Source: Cloeon dipterum (lineage: Eukaryota; Arthropoda; Insecta; Ephemeroptera; Baetidae). Taken from it: a stretch of 64,000 nt of DNA. Below the pieces are notes generated by a model. That model was not told the DNA's origin and did not search any database. It worked only from the letters and a program-made list of their open reading frames with translations. Shown here in pieces: positions 15,531 through 53,000 of the stretch. The DNA lies in NCBI RefSeq assembly GCF_949628265.1, contig NC_088787.1, positions 23,302,501 through 23,366,500 of the forward strand, written 5' to 3'. Made by a program: the position numbers and the translations under genes. Every line of letters begins with the position of its first letter. The stretch's first letter is position 1.

Positions 15531-16494
15531 CTACATCGGTTTTCGAAACTTGGCCTGTATCCAGACCCTGTACATCTTTAGCTTTTGGCCCCTGTTGACT
15601 TGAAGCCTGCGGTCCTCGAGCATTTGCTCTTCTTGAAAGCCCGCCTCACAGAAAATCCTGCGCAGGTCCTCCTTGGTGAAGAAGTAGGCCCTGGTGCCAT
15701 CGCCGCGCATATAAAAATTGTCTGTGATGCACTTGCCCTTCTTGAAACGCAACTGCGCCAAGTCATAGCGCCCATAGTCCCGGAAAAACACCATTCCGCC
15801 AGGCTTCAGGTAATTGAACAGCTGTCGAGCTACGTGGCCCATGTTGTCTGGGTGGACAGCAGACAGCATGAATACGAGCAGCACATGGTCCAGACTGAGC
15901 GGCGGGAAGGGAGTTGGCCATTCCTCGGCGGTCACATCGCACACAAAGCCCTTGCACCGTGACTCGTCGTAGCTGTCTTCCTGCTGCAGGAGCTTCACAG
16001 CCGTCTCAGAGAAGTCGCAAGCATACACGAAGAAGTTGGGGTCGGCCACCGTCCGCACCAGCGGGATGACACTGTTGCCCACTCCGCAGCCGACCTGAGG
16101 AAATCAATTTTTAAGTTTTGGCATATTTCAAAGGACAAACGTTAAAAAAACGTACTTCAAGGACGTTAATTCTTTCTTGATTTCCCTCTTTTGGCAGCAG
16201 CTCCGGGAACTCAGTGAACAGCCACTGGCGGTCTTTGAAGAATCGGTTCTGGTGGATGCCGTAGAACTTGTCCCACAGGTGTCCAGCCTCAGCCTCGATC
16301 CGCTGCGCCTCGTCGACACACATGCGCACTTCCGAATTCTGCTCGACCATCTTCTTAGCGTGCTCTTGCTGCTCCTCATCCCACTGCACATCGTCCCAAG
16401 CGTTGTGCTGGAAGACATCGTCAGGATTGCGAAGGTGCCGGTTGCCAAACTGAGGCCGCGGACCGTCGCCGCTCGACGAGCTCTCGCTGTCCAT
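15531..16494 (-). CDS. METTL2: tRNA N(3)-methylcytidine methyltransferase, METTL2/6/8 family
   Basis: Two exons: 16494-16156 and 16094-15531, 300 aa. Members of this family methylate C32 in the anticodon loop of certain tRNAs, using S-adenosylmethionine. The SAM-binding motif I (VLEVGCGVGN) is split by the intron after the Glu. Downstream are the acidic strand (VYACDFSETAV), the DVT motif, the VHPDNM segment and the closing YRVWIQAKF typical of METTL2-type enzymes. The N-terminal part (WDDVQWDEEQ and FKDRQWLFTEFPEL) also matches the METTL2/8 branch. The frame is open upstream to an ATG at 16593. That would add 33 mostly hydrophobic and basic residues that resemble a mitochondrial presequence (see findings). 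The gene is divergent from CCT8, and the two probably share a promoter region. Confidence 0.93.
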
Positions 16495-16979: not shown

Positions 16980-19900
16980 ATGGCGTTGCACGTGCCAAGA
17001 GCGCCCGGTATGGCGCAAATGCTGAAGGATGGCGCCAAGGTAAGTCGGTCACCGATTTTCCGACGCTTTCCCTATTCTTTGAAAAACGAGCTTTCCATAG
17101 ACCCCTCATTCATGGGTGTCGGACTTGCAGCCGGACCCAGGGAAGCCTCTGAAAGCGCCATGTGGGCGACACCCAGCCGAGATTGCCGGCTCTGCTTCCA
17201 GATTGTTCTTTAATTAATTTTTTACTTAAATCATAATAATCCACACACTTTTGAACGTCTATGATACACAAATCGGATTGAAAAAGACTAAGTCATGATA
17301 CGAAATGGTGGTGTTTGTTTAAAAAGTTACGAAATTCACCATTTCAATCCATAGGGCCAGTGACAGAACCAGGAAACACCCAGCACCACCCACACAAACA
17401 CATTAATAGCTTTCTGTCATAATAGCAAAAATATAAATTAAGAGATGTCTTGGAGAACATGACTCATTTCTTGCGGGGAAGGGGCTCTTAAACAATGTTT
17501 TATTAAATATGTTCTCAAAGGAAGGTCTGAAAATGTCTGGAAGTCCAGTTTTTTATGTGGGGGACCACGGGGGACCGTATTAATATGTGACAGTTAAAAT
17601 GATTAAACCGTGTTGTTATTTCAGATGTACAGTGGCCTGGACGAGGTGGTGTACCGCAATGTGACAGTTTGCAAGGAGCTGGCACACGTCCTGCGCAGTG
17701 CTTATGGTCCAAACGGCATGAACAAAATGGTAATCAATCACCTGGAGAAGCTGTTCGTGACCAACGACGCCGCCACCATCATCAAGGAGCTGGACGTGGA
17801 GCACCCAGCCGCCAAAATGGTTGTGCTCGCTTCGCAGATGCAGGAGCAGGAGATCGGCGATGGCACCAATTTTGTCATTGTTTTTGCTGGAGCCCTCCTT
17901 GAGGCTGCCGAGGATCTCTTGCGAATGGTGCGTAAACCATTAATCACTGGGAAACCTTTAGATCAGCAACACACACTAAAATTTAAATTTCAACATAGGG
18001 TTAAGCAAAATTTAAATGAAATGTGAAATTATTGGTCTTCATTAATTATTCTAATCAAGAGGCTTTCTTTTTTTTTCAAATTTTCACTATGATATTTTTG
18101 CATTTGATATGGGCGATAGGCAGTTGAAGAATTTTCTATATAAATGAATATTTGGCTTGCTCTCAACAAGAAAAAAAACATTTTTGTCCTTAGGGTTTGA
18201 CACCAACAGAGGTGGTGGAAGGCTACGAAATGGCGCTGGAGAAGGCATTGGAAATTCTCCCCACGCTTGTATGCAAAGAGGTTAAGGATCTGAGGGACCA
18301 CGCTCAGGTGGCTGAGGCGATGAAGGCTGCTATTGCCAGCAAACAGTTTGGCCACGAAGACTTCCTCACCGACTTAATCACCAAGGCCTGCGTCTCCATC
18401 TTGCCAGACAGCACCACAACCTTCAACGTGGACAACGTTCGCATCTGCAAAATCTCAGGCTGCGGCATTTTCTCGTCCCAAGTGGTGCCTGGAATGGTGT
18501 TCAAGCGCTTTGTTGAAGGCAATGTCTCCAAAAAGACTAATGCCAAGATTGCGCTCTACACCTGTCCTGTGGACATCATGCAGACTGAAACTTCCGTAAG
18601 TGAACTAAAAATAATGATGTGCATTAAATTATTATGTAACACAAACTGAGCCTAAAATACCTTTTTTCTTTGTTCTCTGACCAACTATAATTTAATTTCA
18701 TTACTAAGGGCTCAAAGTCAGTGGAAAAATCACATCTAGAATGCTAAATTTGCTCCTCAATTGAAGTTATAGAGAACCCATCATTAAATCATTATGTCAA
18801 GTGTATTGGTTACTCTGGAAGTTAAAAATTAAAATACATAAATTATTGTAATAAATTTATTTCGCAATTATTGTTCGGTTGTTTATTTAGAGTGCTAATT
18901 TGTTGTAGGGCACAGTTTTAATTAAATCAGCAGATGAGCTGAAATCGTTCAGCCGTGGTGAGGAGTCGCAGCTGGAGGACCAAATCAAGGCGATCAAGGA
19001 GTCTGGTGCAGATGTCGTCGTCGCCGCTGGCAAGTTTGGCGACATGGCGCTCCACTACCTCAACAAGTACGACATCATGGCTGTCAGACTGACCAGCAAG
19101 TTTGATCTGCGCAGGCTGTGCAAGGCTACCAGCGCTACTGCTCTTCCACGACTGGTATGACTTTCCAATAAATGTTAGCAAACAATCAGCATATGTTACT
19201 TCTTGATGTTTCGTATCATTTTAATTTTCTAAATCTCATTTTTGGAAACCATTTGGTTTTGACTGAATACCACCGCACCTTCACAAAAAAAATGTGTTAA
19301 GTGTTAATTTTGAAATTTCAGACGCCCCCTAACAAGGAGGAATTGGGCTTTGCTGACTCGGTCCTTGTGGATGAAGTTGGAGACACTGGAGTGGTTATTT
19401 TCAGGATGGGTGAAGGTGGATCAAGGATTTCCACAGTTGTTGTCAGGTGAGTTTGGCTTTACAACTTTGTCAGTGTTCAACTTCCTGAAAAGATATAAAC
19501 AAACCATCACCTCAATTTAATCGTTTCTTTATGTACAGGGGTGCCACTGATAACTTCATGGATGACATTGAGAGGTGCATTGACGATGGAGTCAACACTT
19601 ATAAGGGCCTTACGAAAGACAACAGGCTGGTTCCTGGTGCAGGTGCAGTAGAAGCTGAACTCAGCCTGCAGGTAAGTCTCCATTGCTATATCAAAGTTAT
19701 TTTTTCCTCTTTTCAGCTTGTATATTTGGCTAAACATAAATTTATAAAAAATAAACCTTATGCATGGAAAAGAAATCAGACTTTTTATCAGATGGAAAGT
19801 TTAGAGGGATCAATGAAAATATAAGAACAAAATTTTTCTTTGCATCTGATTCAGTTGAGCTACATTTTTTTCCATAGTTAATTGATAGCTGTATTTTTGT

Positions 19901-36044: not shown

Positions 36045-37791
36045 ATGTCGTACGGGCTCGCCAGCAGCCAGGCGACGTCCCTCAGGGCGCTGCCTATGCA
36101 GCACAGGGGCTTCCCCGCTCGAATGGACTACTACACCACTCCAGGGTATGCTGCTGTTGTCAGAATCTATTAATATTTTTGGAAGGGATTCACGTTACGA
36201 GCGTGAACATATGCTTCTAGTTTCCGACGGTTCAAAGTCAGGATATTGTATTAGAATTATTAATTATAAATTGCGGTAGAAAATACTAAGCGAATTTCTT
36301 TTGAGAGGAAATCGGGAAAACATTTTTAGCACTCTACTGTGCGATTGCAGAGCTTAAAATCACGTATAACACTTTGGGATATTCGTGTTTAAATTATTTT
36401 CTTATTTATTGGTTTTGAAAAGGTTGCTAACATCAAAATCGAAAAGACGGAGCGAGAGCAGTGGCTGGAGCAGCAGCAGCAGCAGCAGTGGCGGCTCCTC
36501 AAGTAGCACAACTGCGAGCAATGCGGCCGTCAGCGCCCTAGCCCTATTGTCCTTCCTCTTCTTTCTTAATATGCTGCAGGTGACAATCAATTTGAGAGGC
36601 CGTGACAAAATTTTACATAATTTTGGTTAAAATTTAAGTTTGCTGAGGAAAAGATATTAAATTCAATCCTTCTCTGAATACAAACAATTTGCTAAGGAAA
36701 AATCATTTTTCTGCGCAGCAAAATCTGGCTGCCGGACAGCAACAGACGCTTCTCTTCATGGTAAACAACACCGCAGCCACCGGCACGACTGCTAACGCGT
36801 CGCGGCTCACCCTCAACCGGCGGCGAAGACCGCTGATCGCCTTGGCGCAGGTGAACGCCAAGCAGGGCTTCAACGGCCGCACCAAGCTCACCATAAAAGC
36901 GATGAAAAAGATGCGACTCAAGAAGCGCAGGAGACCGCGTGACCTGAACGATGAACCAGAACCTTTCCTTGAATACAGCAACGACATAGACCTTCAGACG
37001 GTAAAAATTAATCTCTCGCGAAGTCCAAAATGAATCTAAAAAGCCAAACATATTCGCTTGTATGAATTTACATTCAGGATGGATAAAAATACTCTTATGC
37101 CCATCTTGCAAAAATTTTAAGCACGATCATTCAGAATCAAATGTATTATAAGCAATGTCGTTTTGCACAGGAGGATGAACAATATGATGACGATGACACA
37201 GACCTGACCATGGCAGATGAGGATGAAGAAGGAGAAGAGGCTCCGCCGGTGATGATGCCCGGACTGGAGCACAGCGGTGCCCTGCAACTTTCTGCATGGC
37301 TGCAGGGCCAGATCGGTGCCGATCAGATGCGTTACGACCTGGTCGACACTCTGACCAACTGCAGGGCCGTTGTCGCTTGCAATCTGCACAAAGCCAGCAA
37401 ACAGGGAACGCTGACTTCGACGCCAACATCATTGCCAGATGATAGCCTCAAGTGAGAAGCCAAACAAAACATTTCTTAACTTTGCAGCTTAATCAATAAA
37501 AGACTAGTTTGTTTTTAAGAGTGCGCTTTGGAGGGAATGACTTATTCATGCAAAATATTTGATTGCAAATGTGTTTAAAATGAAGGAATATCTTGCAGAA
37601 AGCTGCTTGGCGAAGCGGGCGAGTACGCCGAGTCGGGTCATTTGGACGAAGCGTGTGAGGATTTGCTGTTGGCCGCCGGCGACGAGTGCAACGCGCTGGC
37701 CAAGTCATTCTCCGCGCTGCTACCCAATCTCAATAGTCTCGGCCATTCCATCACTGGACACAAGGACGGAGAAGATAAACCCGATTTATAG
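36045..37791 (+). CDS. Paralogue A: type II membrane precursor with furin-type site and four-cysteine domain
   Basis: Five exons: 36045-36145, 36423-36579 (or 36447-36579), 36719-37000, 37171-37451 and 37599-37791, 337 aa. The cytosolic N-terminus opens MSYGLASS and is followed by a Ser-rich run (AGC repeats). A 19-residue membrane segment (about 68-86, ending FLFFLNMLQ) leads into the shared luminal motif GQQQTLLFMVNNT, which carries an N-glycosylation sequon. A tetrabasic RRRR at about 120-123 matches the furin consensus. An acidic run and PPVMMPGL then introduce the C-terminal domain. That domain contains GALQLSAWLQGQ, NCRAVVAC, a Cys in DEACEDL and a Cys in GDEC. Exons 2 to 5 align with copies B and C. 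No known family comes to mind. A membrane-tethered, cleaved and released ligand-like precursor is my inference. Confidence 0.85.
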
Positions 37792-38467
37792 TTCACCATT
37801 TTTGAGTTGTGGATTGTGCTATTAATTTTTCATAGCAACTAGTGAATACAATTTAAATTGTAAATAACTGTATTCATATTTTTTCGTAATTGAAGGGGTG
37901 AATTATATGAGTTATTATGCCTTGCTTCGTCATTATTTTACGCTAATTTATTGCTTTTTCTATTGATTATTAAAATACAAATTTAATATTGAAGTGAAAT
38001 AAAAAAACAAAACATTTGAGAAAGCATTTTATTTATTATTTCAAGCATTTTTCAGATTTAGACTAAAATACAATTATAAGAGACAATCGCTCCATAACTG
38101 AGCGACCTTTATCCGTGTGTTAACATAATGCAATAGTAGTTGATTTAATTTTAGATACACAATTTTATATTTAATGAATTTAAAAAATAAATCATTGATT
38201 TAAATATCCTGTTTCGAAGTTGCCGATTCATAAAAAAATTTACTAAAATTTTATGATTCTACAAGAAAAGTACTAAATCGTCTTTCAATTCCATAAAATT
38301 TACACACATCTTCATACATACGACCTTTACATTTTCCCGCGCTCACCCCTCCTTTAGGGGAGTGAGAAAACACCCTCTGTCGATCGTACCACCTGATTCC
38401 GAAGGGGGAGGAACATAAAATAACACTGCGCAGCAGACACGTGGGGTAAAAGTATTTGTAACGAAAA
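37792..38467. other. Spacer between paralogue A and the LRR-like gene
   Basis: This contains the paralogue A 3' UTR, with an AATAAA-type signal near 37998, then AT-rich DNA. The last 150 bp are GC-moderate and should hold the promoter of the next gene. No TATA box was seen. Confidence 0.45.
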
Positions 38468-41411
38468 ATGTTGGGGAGAAATCGGTGAGTAAAGATATTA
38501 ATTTAGTTTTTGAGTTGGCTGTGATTTATTTTGTATAGCTGAACACTCAAACTATATACCAAATGATGACCAAGCAGTTTCAAAAATTTAATTTACTGTC
38601 TGGAATGTATTTAATGTTAAGCGGTATGATCGTTCTATTCTCGCAGGAGTGACGTTTCGGACCAAAGAAAAGAGTTGACGAAAGTCAGATTGAATAACCT
38701 CTTTAGAAAGAAGAGCTTGTTAGACCTGACTGTTGATGTCATTTTGGGAAACATCATCGCAAACAAAGGAGGAAACAGATTAAATCCCAAATGTCTGCGT
38801 GAGTTATTGAGCTTATAATAGTGTTATTTACTTTTTAAAGATCTGAAACTGGAAGATGATTGAGTTTTTCAAAATGGAATGAATTGGATCGTTCCCGCAA
38901 CTCGGCTGGTAGCCAATAGCTTATGAGAACTATTTTGATGTAGACACTATGGCCACCAATTAAGTTTGTAATTCTCATTACTAGCGGGCAACCCATTCAG
39001 TGGATTAAAAAATCAGGGTTGCCAGCACTCTTAATCCTGTATATTGTATATTTGAACTTTCTTTTTTTGTAACTAAAATATTATAAATATGTATTATTAA
39101 TTGTGGAACGGAAAATTATGACGAGGATTGAATTACATAAAATAAGTTCGTGCCGTGGAAATTTCCGCAATTAGCCCTGGGCCATTATTTACAAATGCGA
39201 CGGTAAGAGATGGGCCGTATTTCCGCGGCATGAACGAATATATGAACACAAAGTTATAAGCGACATTGATAACTCCCATCTATTTTCAGCTGTATGTCTG
39301 CGCCAGAAACTGTTGTTCAGCTTGACGAACCTAACGTGCAAAAATGATAATGGAAACATGGACAAATTTAAAAAAATACTTCAAGCTTTTGTATATCTGC
39401 TTAGGGCGGATGCTCAGCCTAAGGAAATCGAGCTGTCCAAACTGTTGACATTTTGCCCAAAACACCAGATCCAATTAAAACAACTTTTAAGGGTAAACAC
39501 TGTGTGTAAATATTTTAATATATGTTAATAACGCTGTTTTGTCGATTGTTAACAGGTGCTGCATGTGATTGCAACCCATGCCCCTGGTCTTGAATCTCTG
39601 ACTATTACAAAGACTAATGTGTGGGGTGAACCGATCACTTGCGATGCCATCTTAAACAGTCAAATTTTGGCAGCAATTGCCAGGATGGAAAAGCTAAAAG
39701 TGTTTCGAGTTTACAATTTCAAAATCAAGTTTTTGGACTTAAGATTCATATGCAAGAAATTGAAAAATTTAGTAACTGTTGACGTGAGACTTGACCCAGA
39801 ATGTCTCGTTATAGGAGACCTCAATGAATTCAAAAGTAGCTTTTCACACTTAAAAGTTATTTTGTTTTCAGCAGCGCAATGTGCAGGTCATAGGAACAGA
39901 ATTGACCCCGATTACGTCTTGCAATTTATCAATCGGTTGATTAAACTATGCTATCAACACTTGCCAAATCTAAGTATTGTCCAGGACTGCTATACCATCA
40001 GAGTACCACGCAAAGTTGTTGAAATCTTCACTCTTGAATATCACACCAACGCTCAGCTACGGCACTTTAGCATTCCCTGCCCAAGCTCAAAAGTTGCAAA
40101 ACCATGGCACCTGCTATTTCCCAACGTTACACATCTCAATGTAAGTTCAGTTAAGGTTTTCTCAGGAGTGTCAAAGCAATGGAGGATATTTTATCATTTC
40201 GGGGGTCTAATGCTGGCTGCCCAATGTCAGAGATGGCAAAAAGTGGTTAGTTTAGTGGCTCGATGAAATGCTCAAATTGCTCAACGGGCTGGGAGGCGCA
40301 CCGGCGCCGACTCGCTACTTGCTGGTTTGCACCTTTCCAGCATGCGCGCGTGATTTGGCTTCACGGGACGAATGTCTAGCGTTTCAAAATAAAGTCCTCG
40401 GTGCGGAGGCAAGTGGCCCTTCAGTGGGCTGGGTCCCTGTGCGGCCTGGTGCGCCCATGTTATCCGTTCGCGGTGTTATTGAGTTCCGGGGGGTTTCAGA
40501 ATTCGTGATAGTGCAGTGCGCGCCCTTCCCGGTCCGAGAGGACAGGGATAAAAAAAAGATGTATATATTCATGTGAAACACATCGGCTGACTATTATTGC
40601 TTGTTTTCAGATAACTTGGCCTAACAATGAACTTGACGGTAACTCACTGCTGCTGTTTCCGCAAGTCCAACATTTAGTTTTGCGGAATATTCCATCAGCG
40701 GCCGTTTTGAGCCGATTCCTGGAAACATATGGACCCAACTTGCGCTCGCTCGTACTCGACAATTATTGGCATGGGACGAGTTTATTGTCTTACGAGCTTA
40801 AAAAATTATTTGCCTTTTGCCCGAAACTGGAAAGCCTGGCTCTACTGACTGGAATCGAAATAACTGATGATTCAACCCCGATTGAATTTTTTGCAGAGCT
40901 GCAAGATTTCTCATGGTTTTGCTACAGGTTGTAAGAAAAAAGGGAGCATATCACAAATTAATAATTACGACTTTTTTCATTATTTTACAGTCATGGAAAT
41001 CAAACATTCCTCTCCAACATACTTTCTGCACCAAAACTGAAACGATTGACATTAACAGGAATGAATTTTGACTTGAGCAACATGAGGGAAGTGTCTAGGT
41101 TAATCGTCAATCAGCAGATCCTCAGGCAGCTCGACCGATTCGCTTACATAATAACTGGGAATTACACGATTCAAACCGCTGATAAATATGAAGCGCTCAG
41201 CAACATGATTAAAAATGCTTCTGCGTATCTGCCTAACTTGGCCAGCATTGAAATTGTTGCAAGTCATCCCAAATCAATACTCAGAGAACTGAACCTTGCG
41301 AGTTTCCATGAAGCCTACAATGTAAAAAGCATGGTCTGGAAGGTAGCAAAACAAATTAGTTTCGGTCAAAGATTACAGCGGACCGTGACTAAATGCATTA
41401 TTTGTAAATAA
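38468..41411 (+). CDS. Leucine-rich-repeat-like protein of unknown function
   Basis: Six exons: 38468-38484, 38647-38798, 39290-39492, 39556-40140, 40611-40930 and 40991-41411, 565 aa. The first exon codes for only five full residues. The protein is made of irregular LRR-like units (for example APGLESLTI, MEKLKVFRV, LKNLVTVDV, GPNLRSLVLDN, CPKLESLALL, APKLKRLTLTG), resembling the ribonuclease-inhibitor/F-box type repeats seen in F-box proteins. The N-terminal 60 residues (KKSLLDLTVDVI) might be a diverged F-box, but I cannot confirm that. There is no signal peptide or membrane segment. If it is an F-box protein it would choose substrates for an SCF ubiquitin ligase. It sits between paralogues A and B, to which it shows no similarity. 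The C-terminal end at Cys-Ile-Ile-Cys-Lys is the last codon of a long open exon. Confidence 0.75.
40200..40580. other. GC-rich insert in intron 4 of the LRR-like gene
   Basis: The 470-bp intron 40141-40610 contains a block far richer in G and C than its neighbours. It is open for 102 codons in one frame and ends in an A-rich run (GATAAAAAAAAG, about 40549-40560). The protein it would encode resembles nothing I know. The A-rich 3' end suggests a short retroposed sequence such as a SINE, but no target-site duplication or polymerase III box is clear. Confidence 0.35.
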
Positions 41412-41612
41412 TGGCCAACGCGACTCCTGGCGCCGTTTGAGTGTCTCTCAGTGCCCCAGCGGTTATGGAACAATCTCTCGCCGACTTTGTGGCATGAACG
41501 AGAACTCGAGTGCATTAACAGATAATCATAGATCTGATGATCTATAATTATTGAACTTAAATTGATAATAACTTTCACTATGATAAATTTATCATCTATG
41601 ACTAATTATGAG

Positions 41613-41618
41613 AATAAA
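41613..41618 (+). terminator. Poly(A) signal of the LRR-like gene
   Basis: AATAAA about 200 bp after the stop codon at 41411. Confidence 0.5.
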
Positions 41619-41619
41619 A

Positions 41620-42307
41620 ATACATAAATAACAAACCACTGAATCAATGCTTTGATTTTATTTTTGATACCTGTTTTTTGATGTTGGTAAAGGCACGGGG
41701 CAAAGTTTCTCTGCTGGCTCACATTAAAATAAACAATAGGGTAATTCAAAATATCATATTCAAACGTGTACGGCAAGAAAATTGACTTTGAGGGAAGCAT
41801 AAAAACATGTACAAATTGTGTAGGTTTAAAAGTGTTGCACGAATATCTGAGTTTAATAAAATCATTAATTAATCAATTCTAAATATATCCCCTGCAAATA
41901 ATACGTGCATAAAAGAATAATTTTACAAATTTAAAACAAAAATTAATATTAAGTAAAACTGAAAAAACAGGACATAAAAGCATTAGATAACTCTCAAAGT
42001 TGAATAAATAAGATTTAATAGCAGCTAGAGTTGAATCAGAGGATTATGACATAATTTTGCAGTCTCACTCTACTAACTTCTGTCGTGACAAACTTCCCTA
42101 CCTTACCAAGCAACGGATGCGAATCAATAAGGACACAAAGCGGGACTGTGATCAGAGGTGCGTGTGCAGGGCAAGTCGCCCTTAATTTAGCGGAAATGTG
42201 TGGCAGTAGTGTGCACGGAGGTGACGAGCCGTGTCACTCACCAAACGATCAACCGCTGCGCCTGTCTGCCAGTCTCGGGCCAGACCAGCTAGAGAGCGGA
42301 CGCAGCG
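41620..42307. promoter_or_regulatory. Spacer and promoter/leader of paralogue B
   Basis: AT-rich to about 42060, then GC-richer up to the start codon at 42308. The GC-rich 250 bp probably include the promoter and leader. An open frame runs through it but is not in phase with the conserved protein. Confidence 0.4.
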
Positions 42308-44721
42308 ATGACTTGGGGCCTGGCCTCGTCGTCAGGCACCAACATGAGGCCCACCTTTGGTCGCATCTCCGACAGAGGTCAGGACTTTTCATATTCATCG
42401 CCAGGGTAGGTGCCAATCATTGTTGGAAAATTTTTATAAATTAATAATACCGCGCAAAAACACCATTGAATTTTTTATTTACATTTTCTTTTTAAATGTT
42501 AAGTGTACAAATCGAATCTTAATGAGATTGATCCGTACAGAATAAAAATTAAACTTAAGCTTTTAGTTTTTAGGTTTAAAGCAAAACAAAAAGAAAAATA
42601 TTAATCAAATTAAACTTTTTAGAAAAAAAATATTTAACTTTATGTAAAGCCATTAAATAGAAAATATGCTCAATTTCAGATCTCAAAATAAAGCCAGCGG
42701 AATTTCGAATAAAAATCCACTCATTTCGAAACACTGACTGGACTCCTAATTTCATGATTATTGGTATAGGTGGTCGTCAGGGCCGTCTGGACCATCAAGT
42801 GGCTGGAAGAGCGGCTGGAAAGGATCGAGAGGGGCGAGCAACGCGGCCGTCAGCGCCCTGGCCCTCCTGTCCTTCCTGTTCTTTCTCAACATGCTGCAGC
42901 AGAATCTATCGAGTGGCCAGCAGCAGACGCTACTTTTCTCTACAAATACATCGGGACGCAACCGATTCAACAGAAGGGTGCGACGCCCAGTGATCGCCGT
43001 CGCGCAGCTCAAGAACGACGCCGTTGAGCTCAAAACCAGGCCCAACGCAAAGTTTCTAGTCCGCAAAACGCGGCAAATCAACCCTTTCGCCCAAAATGAA
43101 GTAAATATCATCTTAAACATTTTTAACAGTGAACGTTTCTGTTTTCTTCAAAATATTTTTTTAATTTTCCTTATTCTCATTTATTTTCCAATAAATAGGA
43201 TGTCCCAAATATTTGAAATACAAAAATTTAATTGCATTTAACTATTGAATTTAAATATTTTGATATATTTCGATTTTAGTTATAAGAAATACAATTTTGT
43301 AGATTAAAAATGATCATAGCCACCAGTAGGTTTACAATTGAAAATAGGATACGATGGGATGATGCATGATGACAGCAATAAAATTTGCTTGCAACAAATT
43401 TTTTCCAAAGTCCCGCCTCAATATAAAAAACACACGGAAAATGTCAAATTTTATTAGCAAAATAAAAAGCCAAAATTTCGAATTAAGTGGCATATTTCTC
43501 ATCGCAAATTCTGTAGGAGCCGGAGAGTAGAGAGCCTTTGGAGGATATTGGCCCAACCGATCCACCTCCACCTGTGATGATGGAGGGACTGGCTCAGGGC
43601 GGCGCCCTGCAGCTCGGCGCTTGGTTGCAAGGCAAACTCAGCGCCGACCAACTGCGCACCGACCTGCTCGACACTTTGACCAACTGCAGGGCCGTCGTCG
43701 CCTGCGCCTTGCATACAAACGACAATGACCAAAAGATGCCGGCGGGTCAACTTAAGTATGGAAAATCTCCTTTTCTTTATCAATTCCACTACATAAATCG
43801 TTTGTTTAGCTTTCGGAATTATCACTAATCAAATTTCTCAAATATGTGCAGTGTTTTTTTTTTTTTGTAATAAAAATTAGCAATTGGTTTCAAAGTAGAA
43901 TATAATATGCTGCAGGTGCATCTAGATAAAAATAACAATATTAAAAAGATATGAATGTCCGTTATTTGGTTAAATTTATTATAAAAAGATGAGCATTATT
44001 TTGCTTCTAATATTCAAAAGAGGTCAAAATTTTAGTCATTTCAAGGAGCAAATTGATTGTGCGCTAAATCGATCCCTCTCCCGAGTGTTCCTCCTATAAC
44101 GTTGTATTGATTAATTGGCATTTGACGAAATAAACACGTAAATTATTCAAACAGACGAGTGATTTACTAAATCGCAGTGATATCAGTCACTTCAACCTCC
44201 TGTACGATGCCCAGGAGGTTTTAGTGACTGATATCACGGCGATTACTGGCGAGATTGCTCTTGTATCGCGATACCATTGCTGAAATTCGTGTTACTTAGA
44301 AATTTAGTAAATCACTCGTCTGTTTGAATAATTTACGTGTTGATTTCGTCAAATGCCAATTAATCAATACAACGTTATACTCCAATTAAGCTTTAGCTGA
44401 AATTAATTTTATCTACTACTTAATGCATTCAGAATTATTTCCAGGGCTGTTACACGAGATTTAAAATTGAATATTAAATTATGGCAACCCCATCCTGATT
44501 ATAATCAAATGATATTTAAATTTCTTTTGTTATTTGCCTCTAGGAAGCTATTGGGTGAGGCTGGCGAGTTCGCTGCGGACACGTCCGAGGACAATTTGAA
44601 GCAAGTGTGCCGCGACTTGACCCTGGCCGCCGGTGACGAGTGCAGCGCCCTAGCACTCTCGTTCGCCGGCCTGCTTCCGTCCACTGAGAGAGCAACCAAA
44701 GATTCTGCTGACGAGTTGTGA
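42308..44721 (+). CDS. Paralogue B: type II membrane precursor with furin-type site and four-cysteine domain
   Basis: Four exons: 42308-42405, 42770-43100, 43517-43755 and 44544-44721, 281 aa. It opens MTWGLASSSG, matching copy A. A Gly/Ser/Trp linker ending in basic residues precedes a membrane segment at about 58-76, nearly identical to copy A. The luminal GQQQTLLF motif is followed by an NTS sequon (about 92) and a furin-type RVRR at 102-105. The C-terminal domain holds PPVMMEGL, GALQLGAWLQGK, NCRAVVAC, VCRDL and GDEC. The intron that in A and C separates the membrane segment from the luminal motif is missing here, so exon 2 is a fusion of two ancestral exons. The first-exon junction (Pro then split Gly) is the same in all three copies. 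Intron 3 carries a foldback element. The function is inferred as for copy A. Confidence 0.85.
44095..44379. mobile_element. Foldback MITE in intron 3 of paralogue B
   Basis: Terminal inverted repeats of about 77 bp (44096-44172 and about 44302-44378) start with TATAACGTTGTATTG and are nearly perfect. One short gap (an AA) lies beside the CACGTAAATT stretch. A second nested inverted repeat (GTGATATCAGTCACT and its complement, with AACCTCCT/AGGAGGTT arms) occupies about 44179-44238. The outer TATA palindrome is compatible with a TA target-site duplication, as in Tc1/mariner-type elements. There is no coding capacity. The element makes a long hairpin in the pre-mRNA. Confidence 0.8.
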
Positions 44722-44768
44722 CGGTGGAGAACAATTAAAGTGTCATCTTGTGTTTGATATGCTGTGTA

Positions 44769-44774
44769 AATAAA
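44769..44774 (+). terminator. Poly(A) signal of paralogue B
   Basis: AATAAA 48 bp after the stop codon, only 174 bp before the start codon of paralogue C. Confidence 0.7.
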
Positions 44775-44947
44775 GGGTTCTAGCTATGTAATTAGACAGG
44801 TTAATTTCATTCCCCTTCCGCCACACACCCACACGCACCGCGGGCGCGACCGCGGAACAGCGTTTTCACCGTTTTTCGGAAGCAGGAAAGGGTCGGGCGC
44901 GCGTCGGGCCGCTTTTATTCCGCGGGCAGAGAGCGAGCAGACGAGAC
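44775..44947 (+). promoter_or_regulatory. Compact promoter/leader of paralogue C
   Basis: The 173 bp between the poly(A) signal of B and the ATG of C are GC-rich (ACACCCACACGC and GCGGGCGCGACCGCGG tracts), unlike the surrounding AT-rich DNA. They must contain the C promoter unless B and C are transcribed together. Confidence 0.45.
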
Positions 44948-46930
44948 ATGGATTTGGAATCGGCTACATATCTGCCCTTGGAGGCGCTGGACCCCATTTC
45001 GCGAATGACTGCTGAGCTACAGGACAGAGGCGGAACCTACAGTTACACGGCACCAGGGTGAGTGTCAGGGTGGTCAGGTCGTTGTCCAAGAATTGTTTTT
45101 AAATTATTATTTCATATGAAGAGAGGAAAATGGAATTTTGAGTTTAATAGAAATTATCTGAGGATCTATCTGTTGTCCAGAATTACTTACTGATCTTATA
45201 TAAGTTTTATATATGTTGCTCATATACATATTTCTTAAAATTGTCAATCAGCATTATCAGCAATCAGCTATTGAAGTCGAAAACTTTAATAAACAAACTG
45301 ATCTAAAATTTATTTTGCAATTCGCTCTAATTGCATATAAGTTAAAACTAACAAATTTACATTTAACTTTTATGTTGTGATATTCAACATTAATGTGTGT
45401 TATTAAAATCAAATGTAAATAAAAGCTATACTATATAAAAAAGAATATTGAATAAAAAAATGGCTATTGGATGATAATTAGGAACTGCATAAAATGCTCT
45501 GATGAGTTATTTTTGACACTGAACGTCATTAAATTTGCCAATCAAAAATTAGTAATAGCATTGGGCCAAAACCTTGTCAAATATTGTCATAAGCTAACTA
45601 AAAAATGGAACTAAAATTTTGAATATCTTACAGGTGGGCAGCTTACAAAGGAGTGGTGTCAAAAGCCGGAAGCCATGCCGCGTTAAGCGCCCTTACGCTG
45701 CTCTCGTTCCTATTTTTCCTGAATCTCCTGCAGGTAATTTCGCAAATATATATATTGTCCTCGCAAATTTATTAAATATTGTGTATGTTCAGCAACAACT
45801 GACGTCAGGGCAACAACAAACGTTACTGTTCATGGTGAACAACACGGCGCCGGTGAACCGAGAGGGCAAACGGGTGAAACGGGCGCACAACGCCACCTTC
45901 CTGGCTACACACTCAGAACGACGGTTGCGTGATTTGAGACAAAACGCCCTGCACGCTAGGAGAATCAAGGTACACTAAAGGCGCAGCCAGCTGCGACTCG
46001 ACTCAATCTGATAGCTTTTAATTAGCTCTAAAACTGTGAATGGAAACGACGATGTCACACGGAATTTATAGATTAAACAAAAACTCCTCTATACAGAAAG
46101 AATGCATGCTTCAAATTTTCTTAAATATTCTCTCAAAGAATATACCAATAGTTGTACTAATTTCTATTTAATGTGCGTCTCATTTTCATCAGGAATTTTA
46201 AAATGAAATTGTAGAGTTAAACTGATTATTGAAAAAAACTACAGCGATCCGCTAGCAAACTGCTAAGAGAGAGAAGCACCGAGCCAAGCATGCCAGCTCT
46301 GGAGTCTCCACACCCATTAGCAACGCCACCAACAGCCGAGCTGACACCACCGGTCATGCTGGAGGGCCTGCCACGGGGTAGCGCCCTTCAACTGTCCGCC
46401 TGGCTGAGTGGACAGATGTCCGCTGACCAGCTCATGACTGATCTTTCCGACACTCTAGCCAACTGCCGCGCAGCAGTCGCATGCATCGTGCACCGAGACT
46501 CCAACAATCACCCTAGCAATGAAAAAACCGTCAGGTGCGAAATTCAATGTTAAATTTTGACGAAGGATATTTTCTCTCTACATGTTACTTTGATAATCTA
46601 AAATAGGAAAATTTTAAGACTCATTAAACATTGCATAGAATTAGTTCTTAAATTATAAAAAGTTGAATATTAAATCCGAAGATTCTACGGCAGGCAAGAG
46701 ATTGAAATTTCAATTGCAACATTTAAATTATTACATTTAAGTGCTTTACTATCTAACAAAAGACAAATTTATTCTACAAATGATATACTATTATTTTTAG
46801 GAAACTGCTGCTTGAGGCTGGCGAGTTTACTGAAGTGGGTCGCATCAAAGAGGCTTGCGCCTCTCTTTTGCTCTCTACAAAAGAAGAGTGCACCACCCTA
46901 GCGCGCGCTTTCACCTCCCTGCTAGACTGA
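44948..46930 (+). CDS. Paralogue C: type II membrane precursor with furin-type site and four-cysteine domain
   Basis: Five exons: 44948-45057, 45634-45733, 45793-45969, 46245-46534 and 46801-46930, 268 aa. It has the same architecture as A and B but is more diverged. The N-terminus (MDLESATYLPLEAL) is unrelated in detail, though its exon ends with the same Ala-Pro-Gly split codon. The membrane segment is at about 52-70 (ALTLLSFLFFLNLLQ), followed by GQQQTLLFMVNNT with a sequon, a furin-type RVKR at 97-100 and then an NAT sequon. The C-terminal domain holds PPVMLEGL, ALQLSAWLSGQ, NCRAAVAC, ACASL and EEC. It retains the intron after the membrane segment that B has lost. The stop codon is only 90 bp from the stop codon of YLPM1 on the other strand. 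Confidence 0.85.
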
Positions 46931-46954: not shown

Positions 46955-47000
46955 AATAAAATGTGTGTTTCTGTTGTATTTTAAATCACGATTTTTTATT
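46955..47000. terminator. Interleaved poly(A) signals of paralogue C and YLPM1
   Basis: AATAAA on the plus strand at 46955-46960 serves paralogue C. AATAAA on the minus strand (TTTATT at 46995-47000) lies 20 bp past the YLPM1 stop codon. Cleavage 15-25 bp beyond each would make the two transcripts meet or overlap by a few bases. Confidence 0.6.
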
Positions 47001-47019: not shown

Positions 47020-50000
47020 TCAAATATACTTGGTCCTGGTCAGAGCACCGCCGCCAAACGTTGGGTCCATCATTCGGTTCCAGTCGGTTTGTCCTACCAC
47101 GAAGCCGATGGCCCGCATCTTCTCCTGCTCCTTCCGCTCCACCACGTCGGCCCAGCGCACCTGTCCAACAAGAAATTCAATGAAAATGTTGAGGTTGAAG
47201 AGAAAAATGCGATGAAAGCTACATATTCAGGAATTCAGGGCTATTTTTCTCCAGGGTTTGGATACATGTTACAGACTTTTTTTCTGGATATTAATCTTAA
47301 GCTTTTATTACAAAATTTTAAAAATAAATAAATTTTCAATCTGCAACCTTGATAGAAATTTAAATAAAATATTTATTTAAATCCTGAGACTGAAAACAAT
47401 TTGAGAAGACAACTCAAACTCACTCTTTTCTTTCCTGGCTCGAGAGGAGCATCATCCATCTCCTCCAGACCTAGCCAATCTTCCATTGAGGAGGCCTCCC
47501 TGTTGGCGGGCCGCTTCTTGATGCCATCCAGCTTGTCTGTAAGCAAGCGAGCACATGGTCAGAAGGGTTCAACAGCAGAAAGGCGCAAACTGGGGTTCGT
47601 GGCTTGGGTCTAGCGGAAACTCACCTAGCTTGTCCTCGGTATCCACCGCGTCCCATTTACTTGTAGGGAGTTCGACATGGGCCTGGGAAAAGATTATTTG
47701 CTTTTCGCGTTACATTGGCGCGCATCAGCTGGACGCACCCCCAGAAACCAACCAAACACCTTTTTCTTTTGCTACCACCGACCACATTGGTTCATTTGCC
47801 GGCCTGACTTTGTTCTCATGTTCTAAATAATGCTTGTTCTCTTTCAGTGCTTACCGACTCAAGTGCAAAAGGAAAACTAAGCACGCGTTTTAATACTCAC
47901 AGAAAATTGATTATCCGCCTCTATGTCCTCAGTTCCATCCTCGTTGTCGCTCACCTCTTCAGTCTCAACCTGTGCAAAGCGACATTAAATAAGGAGAAAC
48001 TCCAAGACGCATTTATTTTATTGCCAGGAAGAATTTATACCCTAAAATTTGGTATCTCTATAAAAAAATGTTTCATAGATGACTGGGCAGATTGCTGTGG
48101 AATTGTATAATTTATGTTTAAGAAAATATTAATTAATGAAAATAAAACTGAAAGAAACAAAGATTCAGTAAGACAAGGAATGAATAAAAAAGGGGAATTT
48201 CAGCAGGGGAAAAGCTAGAGAGCAAGTTGAAAAGATTTGAATCTAAATGCCACTGGCACAAATAAATTAGACTCACTCCCAAGGAAAATAATACACATTC
48301 TACCATTTCCCATAAGCTAGAAAAAACTGTTCAATGGAGCTAGAGGACAGTAAAAATTATCCATTTGTCACGCTTCTCTCAGATACTAGCTGCTAATGTC
48401 AACTACTGACTCAATGACGGATTTAGTAGATTTTTCTTCAAATTTTGTTTGATACCTAGAGACAAGAGGTTAAAATAATCAAGCCAATCATAACAGAAAC
48501 AAAGGATTCATATAGTAATTTTAATAAAATATAAATGATAAAAAAAATATTTCTCTTAGGTTAGCCATTGCCAGCCAACGCAAAACTTGGCAGATGGCAA
48601 CCCTGGTGGCAGATTTATTCACCTCAATTGCAGTTTTGGTATTGTTGAGCAGGCCCTTGACCTCTAATTTAGTGAAGTTGGGTGGCGTTGGCTCCCACTT
48701 GGCCGCGATCTGCTCGATCTGCTGCAGCGTGCGGCCGTGCTCGTTGCGCGCCGCGCACACGCTCGCTTCCTCAGGCAGCTCGGCCACAAACGTCTTGACA
48801 CCCTTTGCGCTCGCGTAATGCCACATCTCTTCAAAGTGTTTCACTTTGTCGTTCACGCAGTCCACCACTATGATGGGGAAGAAGCCCTCATCGATTGTCT
48901 TGCGGAACGCCTTCACCAAGCTCTGCCGGTATGCGTCCTCCATCTCAGCCTCATACTCATACTTCATTTCCTGTCAACAGCAACCAATCAGATATTACAA
49001 AGGTTAGTGGGATTTTTTGGAAATACACATCAAAACAATACCATCTATTAAATTATCTCAGTTAATTGGTTTTTACTTAACCAATTTCTAGCTAAAAATT
49101 AATATACCTCATTATTCAAATTTTATTAAATTCTTTCCTTGGAAGTATAGTTGTTTATTTCGTACATTGTTCCAACAACTTCTCTCATCATTAAGACAAA
49201 TTCCTTAAACTGTCCCTCCGATTTCGGGTAAAGTCATTATGGAAGTGTAAATTTTGGTTGTGCATTTTTCAGTGAGTTTTATTCAACCAAAAAATATTTT
49301 GGCCCAATTATTGGCCATCAAAAATTCACTGGTTGATTGTACATACTTCTTGATTCACTAAACAGTTAAATACAATCCTGTTTGCGAGTGAATGAATTTC
49401 TAGTTTTCTCTAGTTGATTATGTGTGGAAACCAAGTTAAAAAAGAAAAATACAATACCATTAATTTGAGATTTCAATGTTAAGTTAATTTCAAGGCCAGC
49501 TATTTATTAATATATAAATAAGACAGACGATATATAAATTTATCAACAGTTGGAGGAAAGGTATCTCTAGTAATTCAAAGCTTTGAGTTTTAAATCAACA
49601 AAGGTTATGAAATTCCCACTTCCCACTTGAGAGCCACATACCTTGGATTTAATTTTCCTGTTAGTTTCAGGGTCTTGAACTTCTGTTTCAACTTCAACCA
49701 TGAAGTAATCATCGAGATTAAGGATCCTGGGTGCGTTTCCACCGTTTTCCACCTCCTTGTCCTTGATCAGCTTAGCTACGTGGCTTTTGCCGCTGCCAGG
49801 CAGCCCTCGCATGAAGATGGCGAACTTTGACGGTCGCTGCACACGACCTGGCAAGCACAACAGCTCCTCTATGCATGACTTCTCTGCCTCATCAGGGATG
49901 TTAAATATCTTTTGGGGCGGCCCGCTACTTTTGCTTGACGATTCCTGGTTGGAACTATGGCTATTGTTGCTCCTGCTGTTCCGCGACTGCTTTGGCGAAG

Positions 50001-53000
50001 GATGCCTGATCAAATTGAAGAAAGTGTTGACAAAATACCATTATCGTCCGCGCACATGACCCTATATTAATAAGTCACGCAAAGAACAAAAATAAATAAT
50101 TCATACTAAATAGCTATTCTCTAATTATCAAGTCAATTTGTGCATGGTGTGCCTCTTTAAATTAAATTTTAGATTTTGCAAGTGACTAGCCCATTTAAAG
50201 AAAAATTTGGAAGCCGCAGATGTCGGAAATCTTGAAAGATCTACCTCTCTGGCCGTGATTCTGAACTGTTTTCTCGCTCATCTCGGTCATGTGGTTTCTC
50301 AGGCCGGTCTTCTCTGTATCTGTGTTCAGATCGGTCTCTGGACCTTTGAATGCCTCTGTCTGGGAAAGAGTCACTTTTTTCACCCTTCTCTCTGCCTGCT
50401 CTATCCCAATCTCTGTGTCGAGAATATCGTCTCCTATCCTCCTGTATCCACCGCTCTCTTTCTCGTTCTGAAAGCCATAAATAAAAAATGTCTCTAAACG
50501 TTTCTGTATCATTCCACAACTTTTGAGCAGTACATCACAAAATTTAAATTAAAAAAAAAAATACTATTTATAAGTAACAAGCGTACCTCTCTCGTGCCTG
50601 CGTCTTTCTTCTTCCTCCCACTTAACATATTGTGTACGATCATACTCGAAAGGATCAGCTGGAATTGATACAAACATTTATTTTATGATGCAAACGAATA
50701 TTTTAGTGACCTCACGTGTGTGAATTGTGGGTTCACTTTCGGACGAGTGACAGTAGTCATAAATTTTGACAGGCGCCTTAAACACGCGCTTCTTTTTGTT
50801 TGCAGCAACTGGCGTTGCAGGCGTCATAGCGGGAGTCATCACGTTCAACTCCTTGTGGTCGTACTCGATTACTGTTTTCGCCTTGTACTCAGCCACTTCT
50901 TCCACTCGGCTTGGCAGTGGAGGTCCCCCGTGTCCGGGCCTGAATTTAATCAGGAACTTTAATTAATATATTCTAACAAAATAACACATTTTTGCTTATT
51001 TTCAAGCTAACCAAATTTCTCGAACACCATTGAAAGTGCCTTTGTGAGAATTACATTTTCTAACAATAGTCAGGAAATATATTTTTCCTTGTATGTACAT
51101 CAAATCTAGTTACAATTTTAACTTGTTTTGTTACTTATTCAATTTTTGGTTTTACACGTCTAGTTGTCTAAGTCTATGGTTGTCATTTTTGCTACTGTTA
51201 GTGTATATTAAGATATTTACTTGGAATGTAATGGGCATGAATCTTAAACAACAATAATATAACACACATTCACAAAACTAAAATAAAGGTCCCAACCCAT
51301 AACAATATTTAGGATATTTTAGGATTTAGTAGCTTTCTTCAAATAATTATCACAAAATGTGTAACTGACTATGTATCTAATTGAAAATTTAAAGTGGACT
51401 TCATACTTGTTGCATGTTAGTCAATCAATATTTCTTATTATTTAATGATTGTATTTCCCTACGAGTTTTTTTCATATCTTTCCCCAAGATCTTAATAGTT
51501 AAAGTTGCGACCAAATATTATATTGGACATAATGTCGATTTTTTTGTGAGAACAAAAGACTTTATCTTGTTGGCCTGTGCCTTTATTGGCAGAGCAGAAG
51601 GTACTACCTGTGTCTAAGGATAAAAAGTAATCGATTTTTAAATTCATTTCCACTCACCTTTGATCAGGCCTCAACATCTCTTCCTGATATGGTTTGAACG
51701 GGCCTCGGTTGTCTCCTTGTGGCAATAGCCTATCGTCAACATCGCGTCCCCTGTCATCTCTATCACGTCCCCTGTCATCAATGTCGTGTTCCCTGAATTC
51801 ATTCCACCGCTGGTTCTGGTCATTGGGCCTGAGACCAGTGTCACCCTGCGGACCAAAGTTCCCTCTTGGTGGACCAAAATCCATTCTGTTTGGACCAAAG
51901 TCCCCTCTGGACGGACCAAAGTCTCCTCTGGGTGGACCAAAGTCTCCTCTGGGCGGACCAAAGTCTTCTCTGGGTGGACCAAAATCTCCACTGGGAGGAC
52001 CAAAGTCCCTTCTAGGTGGTCCTTGGTCCTGGAAGTTGCCTTGGCTGCCTTGCCACTGCTGTTTCTCTGAGGGTGCCAGTTTACTAGGGCTTTTGTCGTA
52101 CATGTACGGTGGCAGCTCCTCGTCACTGTCCAGATCTATCCATGGGTTGAAGTCAGGAGGCAGTGTGCCGACATTGTCTACCTCAGACCTGCCGTTTTTG
52201 CGGCCATCGTTGCTGTCCTCAGAGAAGCGCTCATGCATGGCAGCCATTTCTTGGTTGTCATCCATGAAATCATCCTCAAAGAAGTTTTGCTCCTGTCGAA
52301 AGTTGTTTTGATGGAAAGGCGCACCCTGCGGAGGGCCTGGTTGATTCCTAGCCATGGGACCAGGCTGATTTCTGCCTATGGGACCTGGATGATTTCTGCC
52401 TATGGGACCTGGCTGATTTCTGCCCATGGGACCTGGCTGATTTCTGCCCATAGCTATAAACTCATTCCTGCCCATGTTACCTGGCTGATTTCCAGCCATG
52501 GGACCTAGCTTATTCCCAGCCATGGGACTAGGCTCATTTCCGCCCATGGGACTATGCTGGTTCATAGTTATAGGACCACACTGATTGCCGGCCATGAGAT
52601 TTGGCTGATTCCTGGCTGTGGGGCTGGGTTGATTTCCTGCCAAGGGACCCGGTTGATTTCCGGACAGGTGTCCAGGAGGCAATGGGTTGTTTGCCTGGTG
52701 TCCCTGGTTGAATCTGTTCGCTGGCGGCACAAAACCAGCTGAAGCAATTTAAAAACGTTAAAAATGAGATACAAGATCAAAAATCTATAAAAAATACTTT
52801 CAATTTTCTTGTTAATCATAATGAGATACTCCTATGCCAAAATGTTCATGATTATTAAATCTACCAGTTTTATTCACCATTGTAAACTGATAGTTTGATT
52901 TAGGATTTACATTAAGACAAAAAATTGAAACATTCTTAGGAGTTCTGAGCTAACTTTTAAGCACTGGCTTTACAAAACAAAAGGTATGAGTATGAGTCGC

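What the first reader, a model, noticed from the sequence alone, without database searches (positions are those of the whole stretch)
36045..46930. Array of three paralogues of an unrecognised membrane precursor family
Three neighbouring genes share exon layout, membrane segment, luminal GQQQTLLF motif, PPVM-x-x-GL motif, ALQL-x-AWL motif and four cysteines (NC-x4-AC, x-C-x-x-L, x-E-C). The split codon at the end of exon 1 is the same in all. I know no described family with this build. A and B are closer to each other than to C, including at the DNA level in exon 2. The set looks like a small local gene family in active divergence and is the best candidate here for an undescribed system.
Basis: partly seen in the sequence, partly recalled or inferred. 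Interest (0 to 1): 0.78.

Follow-up and report, generated by a model that had tools for sequence, protein, structure and literature searches.

The report
Three old insect membrane-protein gene copies
Three neighbouring genes in an insect genome encode related one-pass membrane proteins of unknown function with a conserved four-cysteine end domain; they are real and match no catalogued family that was searched, but look like an ordinary old set of gene duplicates rather than a new system.

Summary
Three genes (A 36045-37791, B 42308-44721, C 44948-46930, all +) splice with GT-AG introns into proteins of 337, 281 and 268 aa. They share a phase-2 first intron (GG|G), one membrane segment, GQQQTLLF, a sequon 17 residues past the membrane, PPVM-x-x-GL, ALQL-x-AWL and exactly four cysteines, all in the C-terminal domain. 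Corrections: B lacks intron 2, and another predicted gene lies between A and B. The duplications are old: synonymous sites are near saturation, while the membrane block and cysteine domain change slowly, so 'active divergence' is not supported. No fourth copy was found in the 190-Mb genome. No match reached a Pfam or NCBIfam cut-off, and PDB sequence and fragment-fold searches gave nothing significant. Arthropod proteomes could not be searched, so 'undescribed' is only partly tested; I recall (no record seen) similar uncharacterised insect proteins. Best reading: type II (N-in, C-out) secretory-pathway precursors with a helical, disulfide-capable ectodomain. A good convertase site exists only in C; in A and B proline follows it. 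A strongly basic linker speaks against this topology. A surface or matrix role is a guess. Moderate to low interest.

The parts
36045..37791 (+). Gene A, CDS exons 36045-36145, 36423-36579, 36719-37000, 37171-37451, 37599-37791; 337 aa
   Evidence: GT-AG splicing, open frame; AATAAA at 37998
42308..44721 (+). Gene B, CDS exons 42308-42405, 42770-43100 (corresponds to exons 2+3 of A and C), 43517-43755, 44544-44721; 281 aa
   Evidence: AATAAA at 44769
44948..46930 (+). Gene C, CDS exons 44948-45057, 45634-45733, 45793-45969, 46245-46534, 46801-46930; 268 aa
   Evidence: AATAAA at 46955
36514..36579 (+). A: membrane-segment part of exon 2
   Evidence: family D2 (reference copy)
42834..42899 (+). 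B: membrane-segment part, 89% identical to A
   Evidence: family D2
45668..45733 (+). C: membrane-segment part, 70% identical to A
   Evidence: family D2
37241..37380 (+). A: PPVM-x-x-GL / ALQL-x-AWL / NC-x4-AC stretch
   Evidence: family D1 (reference copy); alignments
43566..43705 (+). B: same stretch, 76% identical DNA
   Evidence: family D1
46345..46484 (+). C: same stretch, 64% identical DNA
   Evidence: family D1
37599..37791 (+). A: last exon with the second cysteine pair
44544..44721 (+). B: last exon with the second cysteine pair
46801..46930 (+). C: last exon with the second cysteine pair

Best explanation
A, B and C are old tandem paralogues of an uncharacterised insect family of type II single-pass membrane precursors. 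An N-terminal tail of 50-66 residues stays in the cytosol, an uncleaved signal-anchor spans the membrane, and the C-terminal part enters the secretory lumen. There it is N-glycosylated at a fixed sequon 17 residues past the membrane. A fast-changing linker, basic in its first half (and acidic in its second half in A, weakly in B, not in C), leads to a helical domain of about 100 residues whose four cysteines sit in pairs on two long helices and probably form two disulfides. At least C could be released by a proprotein convertase (RVKR-A and RIKR-S). Most likely role (a guess, about 1 in 5): a surface-tethered or shed component of an epithelial apical matrix. Shown here: gene models, homology, conservation of motifs and cysteines, slow non-synonymous change in two regions. 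Inferred: topology, glycosylation, disulfides, processing.
For: One hydrophobic segment per protein (best 19-residue Kyte-Doolittle mean 1.85-1.89; next best elsewhere 0.89-1.22, none of those in the N-tail). Net charge of the 15 residues before the segment +3 in B, +2 in C, 0 in A, against 0 after it in all three. A sequon exactly 17 residues past the segment in 3 of 3 although its second and third letters change (NNT, NTS, NNT). Four cysteines in the C-terminal domain and none elsewhere in 3 of 3. Identity between pairs: membrane block plus GQQQTLLF 27-33 of 35, cysteine domain 55-67 of 104, linker only 14-25 of 68-76 aligned residues. Models of two single exons of B (3-row alignments) show helices only, with each cysteine pair on a long helix (H43-71, mean pLDDT 67; H15-43, mean pLDDT 74). 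R-x-[KR]-R at the aligned place in 3 of 3, with a one-residue gap in A. A release route of this kind is described for nematode cuticle collagens (PMC11304992, passages seen).
Against: The first half of the proposed luminal linker is strongly basic (A 11+/0-, B 9+/2-, C 9+/3-), which the positive-inside rule would rather place in the cytosol. C's N-tail is net negative (4+/6-) and A's N-side flank has net charge 0. In A and B proline follows the R-x-[KR]-R motif, a poor site for furin (recalled), so release is credible only for C. Cysteine spacing (x5 and x10) gives no obvious helix-helix pairing. The structure models are weak (pTM 0.38 and 0.40) and the two halves could not be folded together. 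No expression or localisation data.
Confidence: 0.5

Rival explanations
1. Membrane-tethered ligand precursors: the four-cysteine helical domain is a cytokine- or hormone-like signal, displayed on the cell or released by convertases.
For: Type II-like build, conserved small disulfide-capable helical domain, RVKR-A and RIKR-S in C.
Against: Good convertase sites only in C; no significant match to a solved structure by sequence or by fragment fold (weak models).
Confidence: 0.15
2. Resident proteins of the ER or Golgi (adaptor, cargo receptor or cofactor) with the C-terminal domain in the lumen, not released.
For: Single membrane segment with a cytosolic tail; proline after the basic motif in A and B argues against cleavage there.
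Against: No retention signal noticed by eye (no predictor run); no family match above cut-off.
Confidence: 0.2
3. Opposite topology: N-terminus outside, basic linker and C-terminal domain in the cytosol.
For: Strongly basic first half of the linker in 3 of 3.
Against: Sequon at +17 in 3 of 3 and placement of the cysteines; no second hydrophobic stretch in the N-tail.
Confidence: 0.15

Closest known systems
Nematode type II cuticle collagens (such as SQT-3)
   Same: Short cytosolic N-terminus, membrane segment, RxxR motif shortly after it, C-terminal part outside (PMC11304992, passages)
   Different: No Gly-X-Y repeats; a helical four-cysteine domain instead. Comparison of working only; no homology claimed
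BRICHOS proteins (BRI2 and relatives)
   Same: Type II membrane proteins (PMC5824958, abstract start in the listing); linker, cysteine domain and convertase site are recalled
   Different: No BRICHOS match in the Pfam scan at E up to 10
Osiris family (DUF1676, PF07898)
   Same: Insect tandem family with cysteines and a membrane segment (recalled); 31 match rows in this genome
   Different: A, B and C do not match PF07898 at E up to 10; none of the 31 rows lies in the window
Uncharacterised insect proteins with a similar membrane block (recalled, no record seen)
   Different: The stretch was typed after seeing A, B and C, so it is no independent evidence

Membership tests
Any Pfam family | Score above the curated cut-off | tested here: not met
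   3 of 3 proteins scanned at E up to 10: only OB_Dis3 in B, 16.2 bits against a cut-off of 22.8
Osiris (DUF1676) | PF07898 match | tested here: not met
   no match in 3 of 3; the profile is in the library
BRICHOS | BRICHOS domain profile match | tested here: not met
   no match in 3 of 3; that the library holds this profile is recalled
Nematode-type cuticle collagen | Type II anchor with RxxR soon after the membrane segment | tested here: inconclusive
   single segment and R-x-[KR]-R in 3 of 3; proline follows in A and B; topology not proven
Nematode-type cuticle collagen | Gly-X-Y repeats | tested here: not met
   absent from the three translations as read by eye
Insect-wide uncharacterised family | Orthologues in other insects with the same domains and exon pattern | not testable with these tools
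   no arthropod proteomes held; scans of genome contigs and viral contigs, two peptide patterns each, gave none
Type II membrane glycoprotein | C-terminus in the lumen and glycosylated | not testable with these tools
   sequon at +17 in 3 of 3 is consistent, basic linker is not

The most novel reading that the evidence does not exclude
A, B and C reveal a previously undescribed family of membrane-tethered, partly protease-released four-cysteine helical ligands or matrix organisers of insects, with a fold not in the PDB.
Probability: 0.1. Interest if true: 0.6.

Novelty: new member of a known kind. Interest (0 to 1): 0.28.

Why it matters
It gives three well-supported gene models and a clear domain definition (membrane block, +17 sequon, PPVM-x-x-GL four-cysteine domain) for a gene family that no catalogue searched here names. 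If it proves insect-wide, the conservation of the membrane block and cysteine domain would mark it as a useful unknown for secretion or epithelial biology. By itself it overturns nothing.

Tried and rejected
Active divergence or recent gene conversion: not supported. A fourth copy elsewhere in the genome: none found with A or C at E up to 10 or with B at E up to 0.001; the tool scores only its best candidates. Relatives in prokaryote and viral collections: none of 589, 408, 42 and 115 pattern matches encodes a relative. Known family: Pfam (OB_Dis3 below cut-off), NCBIfam (TrbC in A, E 0.084, 12.4 bits against a cut-off of 333) and PDB (E 0.31 or worse) give nothing usable. Fold search of two single-exon models: 12 matches with E 4.8 to 10 for one, 0 for the other, none below 0.001; the models are too weak to conclude from. 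Shared elements in the 500 bases upstream of the start codons: only 9-10-mers at E 0.18 or worse. Literature: two searches for peptide strings gave 0 papers, a weak test because sequences are mostly in figures; topic searches gave 33 papers with 20 listed, 0, 0 and 3, none about this family judging from the listings.

Organism: an insect by the odorant-receptor (5 match rows) and Osiris (31 match rows) profiles (that these are insect families is recalled). Places seen on C1-C5 reach 176 of 190 Mb, so five large contigs hold most of the genome. This fits a mayfly such as Cloeon dipterum (chromosome number recalled; a 180-Mb assembly in PMC7250882, passages). Against it: only 1 OBP-family match where that paper reports 191 OBP genes, though short exons may hide them. 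The species is not settled.

Full report
What is there. Splicing at GT-AG sites gives open frames of 337, 281 and 268 residues. The first intron is in phase 2 after GG in all three, and the last intron is in phase 2 as well. Intron 2 (phase 0, between two glutamines right after the membrane segment) is present in A and C and absent from B, where one exon covers exons 2 and 3. An AATAAA follows each stop codon (37998, 44769, 46955). A predicted gene of several open exons (about 38.6-41.4 kb, read by eye), LRR-like by eye but without a Pfam match above cut-off, lies between A and B, so the array is interrupted.

Likeness and chance. B and C are 55% and 42% identical to A, and 87 alignment columns are identical in all three. 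All motifs named in the finding are present. tblastn against the window finds matches between the genes down to 2.1e-20; outside the genes the best match has E 0.70. In the whole genome 32 of 33 listed matches are inside these three genes (B was searched at E up to 0.001, A and C at E up to 10, and only the best candidates are scored).

Age and selection. Nei-Gojobori counts give pS 0.69 (A-B), 0.72 (A-C) and 0.71 (B-C), near saturation, with pN 0.32, 0.45 and 0.41 over all aligned codons. By region, pN is 0.04-0.15 in the membrane block with GQQQTLLF, 0.25-0.34 in the cysteine domain, 0.42-0.67 in the linker and 0.47-0.59 in the N-tail. The duplicates are old, and two regions are held by purifying selection; the linker and tail change much faster. 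The 66-nt DNA likeness of A and B in exon 2 (89%) lies over a fully conserved protein stretch; the excess of identical codons there is not significant (14 of 21 against 53 of 124, p 0.058), so local conversion is neither shown nor excluded.

Anatomy. Each protein has one strongly hydrophobic segment (A 67-85, B 57-75, C 51-69). The next 14 residues, ending in TLLF, carry no charge. A sequon lies 17 residues past the segment in 3 of 3 and stays a sequon although its letters change. The first half of the linker is basic in all three; the second half is acidic in A (7+/22-), slightly so in B (5+/7-) and not in C (7+/4-). The last 105-133 residues, from PPVM on, hold all four cysteines, spaced C-x5-C, then 35-42 residues, then C-x10-C. 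AlphaFold2 on single exons of B with three rows gives helices only, each cysteine pair on a long helix; confidence is modest (mean pLDDT 67 and 74, pTM 0.38 and 0.40), and the two halves could not be folded together.

How it likely works. Sequon position, cysteine placement and, for B and C, N-side charge favour a type II protein with the C-terminal domain in the lumen. Against it stand the basic linker and C's net-negative N-tail. R-x-[KR]-R is at the aligned place in all three, but proline follows in A and B; C has RVKR-A there and a second site, RIKR-S. So I propose surface or secretory-pathway proteins of which C may be released. The nearest described way of working is that of nematode type II cuticle collagens, with RxxR shortly after the membrane segment (PMC11304992, passages); no homology to them is claimed. 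The epithelial role is a guess.

What is known. Pfam at E up to 10 gives nothing but a sub-threshold OB_Dis3 match in B. NCBIfam at E up to 1 gives one sub-threshold match in A. PDB sequence searches give E 0.31 or worse, and fragment folds nothing significant. Prokaryote and viral scans give none, as expected for an insect gene. Two literature searches for peptide strings found 0 papers. Arthropod proteomes are not held here, so the family may well be insect-wide and sit uncharacterised in databases; my recollection says so, but I saw no record.

Verdict. Real and carefully observed, uncatalogued where I could look, but ordinary in kind: a new member of the known kind 'small tandem family of single-pass membrane precursors'.

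Noticed in passing
window 44095-44379: A 285-bp element with 78-nt arms 99% complementary (MITE-like) in the last intron of B; its 72-nt arm recurs at dozens of places in the genome (88 match rows, both strands of one place counted; 40 of 82 candidates scored). Some arm pairs lie about 6.5 kb apart in the same orientation (e.g. C2:5631833 and C2:5638280), others closer and inverted (C2:11557816 and C2:11558700).
   Followed up: partly
window 40230-40560: Member of a very abundant dispersed repeat of about 325 bp (2573 first-look candidates, 40 scored; full-length matches other than itself 91-94% identical), SINE-like by guess, inside the gene between A and B.
   Followed up: partly
window 38630-41411: Predicted gene of several exons between A and B, LRR-like by eye; three of its open stretches have Pfam matches only below cut-off.
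   Followed up: partly
window 15534-16103 (-) and 17607-18023 (+): Methyltransferase-domain exon (E 2.2e-11) and TCP-1 chaperonin exon (E 1.1e-35); the names METTL-like and CCT8-like are recalled.
   Followed up: partly
window 49570-50040 (-): P-loop exon with a Zeta_toxin profile match of 20 bits, under the cut-off of 22.3; looks like YLPM1 (recalled).
   Followed up: no
own genome C5:12.28-12.69 Mb: Cluster of Osiris (DUF1676) matches, which supports an insect genome.
   Followed up: no
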